From: Clostridiales bacterium
GTDB lineage: Bacteria > Bacillota > Clostridia > Christensenellales > Borkfalkiaceae
Length of the DNA: 37,629 nucleotides
Assembly (NCBI GenBank): GCA_015055865.1
Contig: SVHK01000015.1
Span: 1-37,629 of the forward strand
Direction of reading: 5' to 3'
Shown here: positions 21,852-25,232 of the stretch, one piece after another
Layout of the letters: the number at the start of each line of letters is the position of its first letter
Numbering within the stretch: the first letter of the stretch is position 1
Translations under genes and position numbers: made by a program
Notes under the pieces: model-generated
Database searches by the model: none
Told to the model about the DNA's origin: nothing
What the model saw: the letters and a program-made list of their open reading frames with translations, nothing else

Positions 21852-21880
21852 TTGACAAATTTTTATCTATATTATATAAT
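21852..21880 (+). promoter_or_regulatory. Consensus promoter of the DUF1538-PII operon
   Basis: TTGACA (21852-21857), 17 bp, TATAAT (21875-21880): perfect consensus. The leader is short, about 25 bp. Confidence 0.85.
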
Positions 21881-21909
21881 TATGTAAAAGATAATTTAGG
21901 CGGCAAACT

Positions 21910-23436
21910 ATGTTAAAATCTTTATGGCATAAATTGAAAGAATCGGCGGTGAGCGTTTTCCCCGTCGCCGTTATCGTTATGCTATTGAATTTGACTCCGC
22001 TCGTGCGCTTTACTTTGACGGAAACTATCGTCTTTGCCATTTGTTCGCTTGCGCTCGTGATGGGTATGGCGCTTTTCAATCTTGGCGCGGATATGGCGAT
22101 GACGCCGATGGGCGAGCAAGTCGGTTCGGGCTTGCCCAAGTCGGGGAAATTCTCGCTTTTACTTCTCGTTGCGTTCGTAATGGGCGTTTGCGTTACCATC
22201 GCTGAACCTGATTTGACCGTACTCGCATCTCAAGTGAAAGAAATTATCAACGGTACGACCTTGATTGTAACCATTGGTATCGGCGTGGGGGTGTTTTTGA
22301 CTTTAGGGTTGTTAAGAGTAGTGTTTAGACTTAATCTTGCGCACCTTATGACCTTTTTCTATATGCTCCTTTTTGCGTTTGCAGGCTTAATTTTGGAGAA
22401 CGGGAACGGAAGTTTTTTGCCACTTGCTTTCGATTCGGGCGGGGTAACGACGGGTCCGATTACCGTTCCGTTTATTATGGCTCTCGGCGTGGGCGTATCG
22501 TCCGCACTCGGCGATAAACACGACAAGGAAAGCAGTTTCGGTTTTATCGCGCTTTGCTCGATTGGACCTATTCTTGCGGTTATGCTCTTAGGTCTTTTCA
22601 CGAGCGGAACGGTTGATTATCGTTTGCCCGATTATACGATGCAATCGGGCGCAGGCGAGATTTTAAAAACGCTTTGGCATACGAGTGGAGAAGTCGCGAT
22701 TGCGGTTTTACCCATCGTCGCGTTCTTCTTTTTGTTGCAGTTTTTGCTTTTAAAACTCCCTAAAAAACGTATTATCCAAATCGTCGTCGGCGTTTGCTAT
22801 ACTTTTTTTGGACTGGTTATTTTCCTTTCGGCGGTGTCGATTGGATTCGTGCCCATTGGCTATAAAATGGGTACGCAACTTGCCGAACAATCCCCCGCGT
22901 TACTCGTTTTATTCGCGTTCTTGCTCGGTCTTACCGTCGTACTTGCCGAACCGGCGATTCACGTTTTGAACAAGCAAGTGGAAGAAGTTACGGGCGGTGC
23001 GGTCAAGAAATCTTCGATGATGATTGCTTTATCTGTCGGCGTGGGCGTGGCGATTGCTTTGTCCGTCGTGCGCGCGATTTTCGATTTTAGCATTTTGTAT
23101 TATCTGATTATCGGGTATTTTATCTCGCTGGGGCTTTCTTTCTTCGTACCCAAACTGTACACGGCGATTGCGTTCGACTCGGGCGGTGTTGCAAGCGGTC
23201 CGCTTACGTCCAGCTTTATTTTGCCGTTCCTTGTGGGCGTGTGCGCGGTATTGCAGGGGGAGAGTAAAGTGCTTTTGGACGCGTTCGGGCTCGTTTCGAT
23301 GGTTGCGATGACTCCGCTTATCTCAATACAGGTACTCGGTTTTAAAGCGGTGGCGACCAAGCGCGTGCGTGAAAAACTCGCGATGAAACGTATTTTGGCG
23401 GCGGACGACGAGCAAATTATTAAATTTATGAAATAA
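21910..23436 (+). CDS. DUF1538 membrane protein with two repeats, probable cation/proton antiporter
   Basis: This 508-residue polytopic protein consists of two homologous halves. Each half ends with the same kind of signature: AFDSGGVTTGPITVPF near residue 173 and AFDSGGVASGPLTSSF near residue 421. Each half also contains a similar segment, MGVCVTIAEPDLTVLASQV or TVVLAEPAIHVLNKQV. This is the DUF1538 family. From memory, a two-gene member from Halomonas (UmpA and UmpB) was reported as a Na+(Li+, K+)/H+ antiporter. Here both halves are fused. The duplicated halves suggest an inverted or pseudo-symmetric transporter fold. The two following genes encode PII-like proteins at 12-bp spacing, so transport is probably controlled by a bound nucleotide or metabolite signal. 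The ribosome binding site is TTAGGCGG. Confidence 0.85.
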   Translation: MLKSLWHKLKESAVSVFPVAVIVMLLNLTPLVRFTLTETIVFAICSLALVMGMALFNLGADMAMTPMGEQVGSGLPKSGKFSLLLLVAFVMGVCVTIAEPDLTVLASQVKEIINGTTLIVTIGIGVGVFLTLGLLRVVFRLNLAHLMTFFYMLLFAFAGLILENGNGSFLPLAFDSGGVTTGPITVPFIMALGVGVSSALGDKHDKESSFGFIALCSIGPILAVMLLGLFTSGTVDYRLPDYTMQSGAGEILKTLWHTSGEVAIAVLPIVAFFFLLQFLLLKLPKKRIIQIVVGVCYTFFGLVIFLSAVSIGFVPIGYKMGTQLAEQSPALLVLFAFLLGLTVVLAEPAIHVLNKQVEEVTGGAVKKSSMMIALSVGVGVAIALSVVRAIFDFSILYYLIIGYFISLGLSFFVPKLYTAIAFDSGGVASGPLTSSFILPFLVGVCAVLQGESKVLLDAFGLVSMVAMTPLISIQVLGFKAVATKRVREKLAMKRILAADDEQIIKFMK

Positions 23437-23448
23437 GGAGAGGTAGGT

Positions 23449-23838
23449 ATGGCTTTAAAGACGGTTAAAAAACCTAAAAAAGAGAAATCCGCCTCGACGG
23501 ATTTCAAAAAACTCAAACTTTTGGTTGCCATCGTAAACCGTAATAAAACGGAGTTCTATATGGACTTTTTAAGCGGTTTCGAAGTGAATTTCCAAACGGC
23601 GGCGTTGGGGCGCGGTACGGCAAAATCGGAGACGCTACACTTGCTTGGTTTGGAAGAAACGGATAAAGGGGTAATTTTTAGCGTAATCAAAGAAGAACGG
23701 ACGGAAGAAATTTTACGCGAGCTTGAAAACAAATTCCAAACGCTCAAAAAGGGCAAAGGCGTTGCGTTTACCGTGCCTTTGACGAGCGTAATCGGCGTAG
23801 CGATTTACCGCTTTTTAAGTAACAATAGAACGGTGTAA
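23449..23838 (+). CDS. PII-like signalling protein 1
   Basis: This 129-residue protein has a basic N-terminal tail (about 20 residues rich in Lys) and then a PII-like alpha/beta fold pattern: KLLVAIVNRNKTEFYMDFLSG, then AALGRGTAKSE, GVIFSVIKEE and GKGVAFTVPLTSVIGVAIYRF. It resembles the neighbouring second PII-like protein in strand order and in the GRGTA and GxGVAFxxP segments. The T-loop is short and lacks the uridylylated Tyr of GlnB. Its AAGGAG site overlaps the stop codon of the DUF1538 gene, so translation is probably coupled. The assignment is by eye. Confidence 0.75.
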   Translation: MALKTVKKPKKEKSASTDFKKLKLLVAIVNRNKTEFYMDFLSGFEVNFQTAALGRGTAKSETLHLLGLEETDKGVIFSVIKEERTEEILRELENKFQTLKKGKGVAFTVPLTSVIGVAIYRFLSNNRTV

Positions 23839-23850
23839 GGAGAAAGACGA

Positions 23851-24186
23851 ATGAAATATACTCATCAAGCAATCATTTGTATCGTAAATAGCGGTTATTC
23901 GGGCGAAGTTATGGACTCCGCAAAGAAATTCGGAGCACGTGGCGGTACGGTATTAAACGCACGCGGTACGGCGAATAAGGACGCGGAAAAGTTCTTCGGG
24001 ATTTCCGTCGAATCGGAAAAGGAAATCGTTTTAATCGTCGTTCAAAGCAATCTCGTGGACGATATTCTCCACGCTCTTTATCAGGAAGTTGGGCTGAATA
24101 CGCCCGGTCAGGGCATTGCCTTCGCTCTGCCCGTCGACAACGTCGTCGGTATCGCAACCGAAACGAACGAAAAACAAGAAAAATAA
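23851..24186 (+). CDS. PII-like signalling protein 2
   Basis: This 111-residue protein matches the PII pattern well: AIICIVNSGYSGEVMDSAKKFGARGGTVLNARGT, EKEIVLIVVQSNLVDDILHAL, and PGQGIAFALPVDNVVGI. The usual GlnB T-loop Tyr is absent and the loop is short (ANKDAEKFFGISVESEKE). It is likely to bind a nucleotide in trimer clefts, as PII proteins do, and to contact the DUF1538 transporter encoded first in the operon. Spacing to the first PII-like gene is 12 bp, with AAGGAG. Confidence 0.85.
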   Translation: MKYTHQAIICIVNSGYSGEVMDSAKKFGARGGTVLNARGTANKDAEKFFGISVESEKEIVLIVVQSNLVDDILHALYQEVGLNTPGQGIAFALPVDNVVGIATETNEKQEK

Positions 24187-24201
24187 GGTTAAAAGAATTA
24201 T

Positions 24202-24237
24202 AAAAAGGACTTGGATTGAGAAATCCAAGTCCTTTTT
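24202..24237. terminator. Bidirectional terminator between the PII operon and fba
   Basis: A perfect 16-bp inverted repeat (24202-24217 with 24222-24237), loop GAGA, A-tract on one side and T-tract on the other. It serves both converging units. Confidence 0.95.
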
Positions 24238-24257
24238 GGGTTAGTTGTCGTTTGAAA

Positions 24258-25196
24258 TTAGAACGCTTTACCTGCCGAACCAAGCACGTTGACAATCTTG
24301 TGTTTTACCATTTCTTTCATCATCATACGCGCGTCGCCAAGGTATTGACGGGGGTCGAAGTGGCTAGGGGATTCGTTGAAGTGCTTTCTAATCGCAGCGG
24401 TGAACGCTACGCGAAGGTCGGAGTCGATATTGATTTTGCAAACCGCCATTTGAGCGGCTTTTCTAAGTTCGCTTTCGGGAATACCGATAGCGTCGGGCAT
24501 GTGTCCGCCGAATTGGTTAACGATAGCAACCTTATCTTGGGGAACGGACGACGCGCCGTGAAGAACGATGGGGAAGCCGGGCAATCTCTTGCCGATTTCT
24601 TCTAAGATATCCAAACGGAGTTTGGGGTCTTGACCGGGCTTGAACTTATACGCGCCGTGGCTCGTGCCGATTGCGATTGCAAGCGAGTCGATGCCCGTCT
24701 TTTGGGTAAATTCTTCTACTTCGTCAGGGGAAGTGAATTGCGCGTCAGCCGCGTCAACGTTTACGTCGTCTTCGATACCTGCGAGTTTACCGAGTTCCGC
24801 TTCAACGACTACGCCGTGGTCGTGCGCGTATTCAACGACTTTCTTCGTAATAGCGATATTTTCTTCCCAAGGATGGGACGACGCGTCAATCATAACGGAA
24901 GTGAAACCGCTGTCGATAGACGCTTTGCAGATTTCGAAGTCTGCGCCGTGGTCAAGGTGCATAGCGATGGGAATTTCGTTCGTTTCAACCGCAGCTTGTA
25001 CGAGATGCTTTAAATATACGGGGTTCGCATATTTTCTCGCACCGGCGGAAACTTGCAAAATAACGGGAGATTTTTCTTCGTTTGCTGCTTCCACGATTGC
25101 TTGAATCATTTCCATATTGTTTACGTTGAAAGCGCCGATAGCGTATTTTCCAGCGTAAGCTTTTTTAAACATTTCGGTAGTGGTTACCAAAGGCAT
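24258..25196 (-). CDS. fba: Class II fructose-bisphosphate aldolase
   Basis: This zinc enzyme cleaves fructose-1,6-bisphosphate in glycolysis. The 312-residue protein has MHLDHGAD, with catalytic Asp82 and zinc ligand His83, then GTSHGAYK, VLHGASSVP and NIDSDLR, which carry the remaining zinc and phosphate contacts. The open frame reaches a TTG at 25211 inside the GGAGG site. The ATG at 25196 gives correct spacing and the usual MPLVTT start. Monocistronic with its own promoter. Confidence 0.97.
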   Translation of the reverse strand: MPLVTTTEMFKKAYAGKYAIGAFNVNNMEMIQAIVEAANEEKSPVILQVSAGARKYANPVYLKHLVQAAVETNEIPIAMHLDHGADFEICKASIDSGFTSVMIDASSHPWEENIAITKKVVEYAHDHGVVVEAELGKLAGIEDDVNVDAADAQFTSPDEVEEFTQKTGIDSLAIAIGTSHGAYKFKPGQDPKLRLDILEEIGKRLPGFPIVLHGASSVPQDKVAIVNQFGGHMPDAIGIPESELRKAAQMAVCKINIDSDLRVAFTAAIRKHFNESPSHFDPRQYLGDARMMMKEMVKHKIVNVLGSAGKAF

Positions 25197-25232
25197 AGGT
25201 GAGTCCTCCAAATTTTATTTATTACCGAAAAC

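What the first reader, a model, noticed from the sequence alone, without database searches (positions are those of the whole stretch)
21910..24186. Fused DUF1538 transporter in one operon with two divergent PII-like proteins
Seen: one promoter, three genes at 12-bp spacing, a DUF1538 protein with two copies of the AFDSGGV motif, then two short proteins with a PII-like pattern but without the GlnB T-loop Tyr. Known: DUF1538 pairs (UmpAB) have been reported as cation/proton antiporters, and PII-type proteins gate transporters such as AmtB and SbtA. Inference: the two PII-like proteins may form a heterotrimer or two alternative trimers that gate this transporter in response to a nucleotide. Two PII-like regulators for one transporter is unusual.
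Basis: partly seen in the sequence, partly recalled or inferred. Interest (0 to 1): 0.72.

Follow-up and report, generated by a model that had tools for sequence, protein, structure and literature searches.

The report
Ion antiporter with paired P-II regulators
A three-gene unit in a gut bacterium encodes a membrane protein of a known ion-antiporter family together with two small P-II-type signalling proteins; the same partnership recurs in many bacteria, which suggests that P-II proteins also control cation/proton exchange.

Summary
Window 21852-24238 is a self-contained operon: perfect promoter, fused two-repeat DUF1538 protein, two proteins that pass Pfam's P-II cut-off, 12-bp gaps, strong terminator. 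The association is a rule, not a quirk. In all 80 named relatives kept by the scan, P-II A follows the transporter, and P-II B follows A in 78 (two contigs end there); other neighbours are hardly shared (7 loci at most). In 144 uncut operons from unnamed Bacillota genomes, 143 have linked P-II. Partner numbers track: single-repeat genes have one P-II (11 of 11), fused two-repeat genes two (91 of 92, one none), two-gene pairs one (21) or two (20). The two P-II domains are often one tandem chain. Charge bias suggests that the two transporter halves have opposite topology. No other P-II and no Amt were found in the genome. The window's P-II proteins lack the ATP-phosphate residues and the modified tyrosine of GlnB/GlnK, so 'nitrogen regulator' is doubtful. 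Best reading: a P-II-gated DUF1538 (UmpAB-type) cation/proton antiporter whose regulator was doubled along with the transporter. Gating, ligand, substrate and heteromer are inferred, not shown. 'Two P-II for one transporter is unusual' is wrong for this family.

The parts
21852..21880 (+). promoter, TTGACA-17 bp-TATAAT
   Evidence: 12 of 12 consensus matches
21910..23436 (+). fused two-repeat DUF1538 membrane protein, 508 aa
   Evidence: PF07556, two stretches, E 1.8e-127; helical model pLDDT 80.4, pTM 0.79
21970..22599 (+). DUF1538 repeat 1 (predicted N-in, C-out)
   Evidence: family search; K+R bias
22714..23343 (+). DUF1538 repeat 2 (predicted N-out, C-in)
   Evidence: family search; K+R bias
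22426..22458 (+). AFDSGGVTTGP motif of repeat 1; its GP end lies at a break between two helices of the model
23170..23202 (+). AFDSGGVASGP motif of repeat 2; its SG lies at the matching helix break
23449..23838 (+). P-II-type protein A, 129 aa, with about 20 aa before the P-II match
   Evidence: PF00543 27.8 bits, cut-off 25; profile homologous to B, hhalign 98.3%, E 2.6e-14
23851..24186 (+). P-II-type protein B, 111 aa
   Evidence: PF00543 33.7 bits; its profile hits solved P-II proteins, best E 1.3e-07
24201..24238 (+). intrinsic terminator, terminator-like on both strands, so perhaps shared with the convergent ORF at 24258-25211

Best explanation
The operon encodes a dedicated, P-II-controlled ion antiporter. 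The 508-aa protein is a DUF1538 transporter whose two halves sit in the membrane in opposite orientations, so one chain does what UmpA plus UmpB do as a heterodimer: exchange Na+/Li+/K+ against H+ (inferred from the family). The two small cytoplasmic P-II proteins, A and B, form trimeric P-II assemblies, mixed or two separate ones, that dock on the cytoplasmic face, most likely through their T-loops, and inhibit exchange until a small-molecule signal releases them, as GlnK does to AmtB and SbtB to SbtA. The ancestral unit probably had one DUF1538 and one P-II; the P-II was doubled along with the transporter. Shown here: operon anatomy, homology, strict linkage, match of repeat numbers, opposite charge bias of the halves, loss of the ATP-phosphate residues. 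Inferred: topology, binding, gating, sign of the effect, substrate, ligand, order of duplications.
For: P-II A follows DUF1538 in 80 of 80 named loci and B follows A in 78, the other two ending there, while other neighbours recur in at most 7 loci. In the window's family, 71 of 71 low-scoring Pfam P-II hits lie within 753 bp of a DUF1538 match; the 19 high-scoring ones do not, and 9 of the 10 of these that I scanned are Amt-GlnK fusions. Repeat numbers match (Fisher 6e-13 on the 9 single versus 89 fused units, phylogeny ignored). Own genome: only these two P-II, no Amt. K+R bias of N and C halves +9.9 and -8.2, 168 each. P-II fold in the model of a tandem homologue. UmpAB is an antiporter heterodimer (PMC5484666, abstract). 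A machine-learning study lists DUF1538 among pH-adaptation genes (PMC13255231, one passage). P-II inhibits Amt and SbtA (PMC10710835, passages; PMC8352866, passages). The intact fused DUF1538 without linked P-II has a tandem P-II elsewhere in its genome; a genome whose DUF1538 frame carries stops has no P-II match.
Against: No direct evidence of contact: no ORF in the loci held carries both domains. No assay of a fused or P-II-linked DUF1538 was found; the NCBIfam UmpA/UmpB equivalog cut-offs are missed by far (160.5 of 490 and 155.6 of 500 bits). The second DUF1538 of the own genome, cut at its 5' side, has no P-II behind it. P-II-gated transporters are said to be restricted to those that can function as trimers; UmpAB is a heterodimer. 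A-type proteins are poor P-II: 14 of 28 reach P-II at E 0.01 in Pfam, and the A profile finds no solved structure at 0.01. In the family-wide Pfam search 11 of 68 DUF1538 genomes gave no P-II match near it; my own profiles found it in the seven of these that I opened, four were not opened.
Confidence: 0.66

Rival explanations
1. The two proteins are ordinary nitrogen-status P-II regulators (GlnB/GlnK) that happen to lie behind a transporter.
For: They belong to PF00543, and plasmid records name such genes 'P-II family nitrogen regulator'.
Against: Linkage in 143 of 144 uncut units; no Amt match in the genome; the K90 column holds Ile, Val, Leu or Met in 246 of 247 domains (one gap) and the R101 column Gly in 207 of 247; a high-scoring P-II exists separately in 8 of the 68 DUF1538 genomes of the family.
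Confidence: 0.08
2. A and B are obligate structural subunits or assembly factors of the transporter rather than signal-dependent gates.
For: Strict linkage and matching repeat numbers; loss of the canonical effector residues.
Against: Halomonas UmpAB worked in E. coli from the two genes alone (PMC5484666, passages), though whether a P-II gene follows umpAB there was not examined; the second B-loop glycine and the K58 column, part of the P-II ligand region as I recall it, stay conserved.
Confidence: 0.15
3. A and B control something else, or relay the transporter's state to the cell, with the transporter as sensor.
For: AmtB sequesters GlnK at the membrane (title in the reference list of PMC10710835); the second DUF1538 of the genome has no P-II of its own.
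Against: The rest of the neighbourhood is not conserved, so no common second target shows.
Confidence: 0.11

Closest known systems
UmpAB, two-component Na+(Li+,K+)/H+ antiporter of Halomonas zhaodongensis (DUF1538)
   Same: Two homologous DUF1538 repeats; the best stretch for UmpA is the N half, for UmpB the C half.
   Different: Two genes, not one; equivalog cut-offs not met; the paper's main text has no 'PII', 'P-II' or 'nitrogen'.
GlnK-AmtB
   Same: P-II tied to a transporter; in the window's own family GlnK is fused to Amt.
   Different: Ammonium transporter, one P-II with the canonical effector residues; here two diverged P-II and another transporter family.
SbtB-SbtA
   Same: P-II-like protein encoded with its transporter, which has inverted repeats; inhibitory.
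   Different: Bicarbonate uptake, one P-II-like protein, trimeric transporter.
PstA/DarA c-di-AMP receptor (PF06153, accession recalled)
   Same: P-II-like, Gram-positive bacteria (listing); the own genome has a diadenylate cyclase domain.
   Different: Neither protein matches any family but PF00543 in the Pfam scan.

Membership tests
DUF1538 (PF07556) | Pfam gathering score 22.6 | tested here: met
   423.2 bits, two stretches
UmpAB antiporter | NCBIfam equivalog cut-offs NF041627/NF041628 | tested here: not met
   160.5 of 490 and 155.6 of 500 bits
UmpAB antiporter | Na+(Li+,K+)/H+ antiport activity | not testable with these tools
   needs a vesicle assay
P-II (PF00543) | Pfam gathering score 25 | tested here: met
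   27.8 (A) and 33.7 (B) bits
P-II (PF00543) | P-II (ferredoxin-like) fold | tested here: inconclusive
canonical GlnB/GlnK | ATP-phosphate residues K90, R101, R103 (numbering and role recalled from E. coli GlnB) | tested here: not met
   Window A has V, G, A and window B I, G, A; K90 column I/V/L/M in 246 of 247 DUF1538-linked domains, one gap
canonical GlnB/GlnK | T-loop tyrosine for uridylylation | tested here: not met
   Leu in A, Phe in B at the YRG tyrosine column
canonical P-II | homotrimer | not testable with these tools
   single-chain prediction only
PstA/DarA | match to its Pfam family | tested here: not met
   only PF00543 at E up to 1
SbtB | AMP/cAMP binding and SbtA partner | not tested
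   the linked partner is another family; ligand not testable here

The most novel reading that the evidence does not exclude
A P-II-controlled cation/proton antiporter, with a two-part P-II assembly (A plus B, often one tandem chain) that reads a non-canonical ligand and matches the built-in asymmetry of an inverted-repeat transporter. This would be a P-II target beyond the trimeric carriers, and a case in which regulator and transporter were duplicated in step, possibly with two separate doublings of P-II (the best tree gives two origins of A; one origin is not rejected).
Probability: 0.33. Interest if true: 0.8.

Novelty: new variant of a known kind. Interest (0 to 1): 0.62.

Why it matters
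[quoted passage not shown] If P-II also gates DUF1538, sodium, potassium and pH balance join the list, in bacteria from gut Clostridia to alphaproteobacterial plasmids. Pfam still calls DUF1538 a family of unknown function; a strict partner gives a handle on it, and genes annotated as P-II nitrogen regulators behind DUF1538 may need another name. The matching repeat numbers make stoichiometry directly testable.

Tried and rejected

Single origin of the A domain: the best tree gives two clades, the AU test does not reject one (p 0.25), so I do not claim independent doublings. The root lies on a long outgroup branch. That tree holds 77 of the 255 domains: random draws, nine loci with long or cut rows left out (L030, L041, L049, L082, L173, L181, L188, L199, L219); the 255 themselves take every fourth named locus and every second locus numbered below 36.

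Dual topology of single-repeat DUF1538: mean bias +3.4, range -1 to +8, 9 proteins; start codons are uncertain, so suggestive only.

c-di-AMP as ligand: a DAC domain is in the genome, but nothing ties it to A or B. Metal: two-gene systems have His in the column aligned with T104 of GlnK in 50 of 53 domains; the window has none there. Both left as ideas.

Conserved partners beyond the trio: none (ORFs of 100 aa or more within 2.5 kb). DUF1538-P-II single-chain fusion: none in the loci held. Literature: searches for DUF1538 (5 papers), UmpAB (7), P-II superfamily and neighbourhood (20), tandem or double P-II (12), PII-like with antiporter and c-di-AMP (12 of 32 listed), PotN (4), SbtB/AmtB (9) and PII-NG (5) showed no report of a DUF1538-P-II link by title or start of abstract. 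Of the five DUF1538 papers I looked inside two for P-II (PMC5484666; PMC13255231). Most subscription journals are not held. Work on a PII-NG group is recalled and was not seen.

Full report
OBSERVATION. A promoter matching 12 of 12 consensus positions starts 58 bp upstream (21852-21880) and a hairpin terminator closes the unit at 24201-24238 (-23.4 kcal/mol, z -7.8). The first protein has two PF07556 stretches; both small proteins pass Pfam's P-II cut-off (27.8 and 33.7 against 25 bits). Profiles of A and B are homologous over 101 columns (98.3%, E 2.6e-14). The B profile finds solved P-II proteins (best E 1.3e-07); the A profile finds none at 0.01. In Pfam 14 of 28 A-type proteins reach P-II at E 0.01, and 28 of 28 B-type ones.

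OWN GENOME. The genome (1.43 Mb, 94.5% complete) has no other P-II match and no ammonium transporter match. It has a second DUF1538 gene, cut by the start of contig C49, followed by a convergent ORF that looks like an IS110-type transposase (my reading, not searched) and no P-II.

LINKAGE, NAMED RELATIVES. In all 80 the next gene is A; B follows in 78, and in L082 and L108 the contig ends right behind A. Titles name Clostridia and other Bacillota, Bacteroidales, Fibrobacter and others, nearly all metagenome assemblies, so single labels may be wrong. Other neighbours (ORFs of 100 aa or more within 2.5 kb) are hardly shared: the largest cluster spans 7 loci.

DUF1538 is in 68 of 101 genomes of the family and 101 of 299 of the phylum, the window's own counted in both. 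I examined loci of 46 of the 68 and at least one locus of each of the 101; genomes with several DUF1538 loci were not always covered in full (the 20 genomes still missing). Leaving out the window, second copies of the same place (L038, L061, L065, L214) and units cut by contig ends: single DUF1538 gene, 11 of 11 with one P-II; two DUF1538 genes, 21 with one P-II and 20 with two (6 as two genes, 14 as one tandem chain); fused DUF1538, 91 of 92 with two (29 as two genes, 62 tandem), one with none (9 + 32 + 90 units, 2 + 9 + 2). P-II was counted with profiles built from the family's own A and B, so a very diverged second P-II could be missed. One fused unit (L187) has its DUF1538 in two frames. 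The exception (L195) has a tandem P-II of 240 aa on another contig. Cut units dropped: L016, L039, L160, L166, L207, L225 and L266, L274-L277, L279. Of these L016, L039, L160, L207, L266, L275, L277 and L279 show P-II; L225, the window genome's second copy, shows none; L166, L274 and L276 run off the contig. G156 carries a DUF1538 frame with stop codons (L278, left out too) and no P-II match.

CONTROL WITHIN THE FAMILY. Pfam P-II matches in the 101 family genomes fall into two sets: 71 of 20-45 bits, all within 753 bp of a DUF1538 match, and 19 of 78-96 bits, none on a DUF1538 contig. I scanned 10 of the 19: nine carry an ammonium transporter domain in front of P-II, L243 shows P-II alone. Against this, 11 of the 68 DUF1538 genomes gave no low-scoring P-II match; in the seven that I opened my own profiles found P-II behind DUF1538, four (G042, G055, G097, G099) were not opened.

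BEYOND. Of nine plasmid records with a match I opened five. All five have P-II annotated directly behind DUF1538: Paraclostridium, Peptoclostridium and Vescimonas one long P-II gene (222, 222 and 224 aa); Methylocystis and Chelativorans (Alphaproteobacteria) a DUF1538 pair with one P-II. In Chelativorans the first DUF1538 gene is only 90 aa.

TRANSPORTER. Positive charges in predicted loops give a bias of +9.9 for N halves and -8.2 for C halves (168 each), about +5 for first genes and -4 to -6 for second genes of pairs (33 each), and +3.4 for 9 single genes. The halves therefore most likely have opposite topology. The tree of 82 repeats separates N-type, C-type and single repeats. The window's model is all-helical, with helix breaks at the conserved glutamate of the EP motif and at the end of the AFDSGGV motif in each repeat; no solved fold matches convincingly. 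UmpAB, a DUF1538 pair, is a pH-dependent Na+(Li+,K+)/H+ antiporter and a heterodimer (PMC5484666; abstract, section 10 and passages seen). DUF1538 is also listed among pH-adaptation genes in a machine-learning study (PMC13255231, one passage). The window protein misses the UmpA/UmpB equivalog cut-offs widely, so its substrate is inferred.

MECHANISM. By analogy with GlnK-AmtB and SbtB-SbtA, where the T-loop blocks or partly blocks the path (PMC10710835 and PMC8352866, passages), I propose inhibition of exchange by cytoplasmic P-II assemblies. Halomonas UmpAB worked in E. coli from the two genes alone, which fits an inhibitory gate better than an obligate subunit; whether umpAB has a P-II neighbour there was not examined. 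The match of repeat numbers suggests that the P-II was doubled along with the transporter; shared ancestry makes the units non-independent, so the Fisher value is only descriptive.

VERDICT. A real, conserved module, not a local oddity. The parts are known families; the partnership and the matched doubling were not found in print in the searches made.

Noticed in passing
L225 2-1048 and 1192-2367 (own genome, contig C49): Second DUF1538 gene, cut at the contig start, with no P-II behind it; a convergent ORF that looks like an IS110-type transposase lies about 150 bp downstream.
   Followed up: partly
L226-L244: High-scoring P-II of this family: nine of ten scanned are C-terminal domains of Amt ammonium transporters (Amt-GlnK fusions).
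   Followed up: partly
L278 (G156): DUF1538 frame with several stop codons in a genome without any P-II match: both partners seem lost together.
   Followed up: partly
P-II of two-gene systems, e.g. L171, L176: They share HE in the T-loop consensus and a His near the C-terminus (50 of 53 domains), a possible metal site absent from the window.
   Followed up: no
L171 and L176: Two complete DUF1538-DUF1538-P-II units one behind the other in one stretch.
   Followed up: no
L255, L256, L257, L258, L259: DUF1538-P-II units on plasmid records, two of them (L256, L257) typed as conjugative or mobilizable; the Methylocystis unit (L257) lies between IS66 elements.
   Followed up: partly
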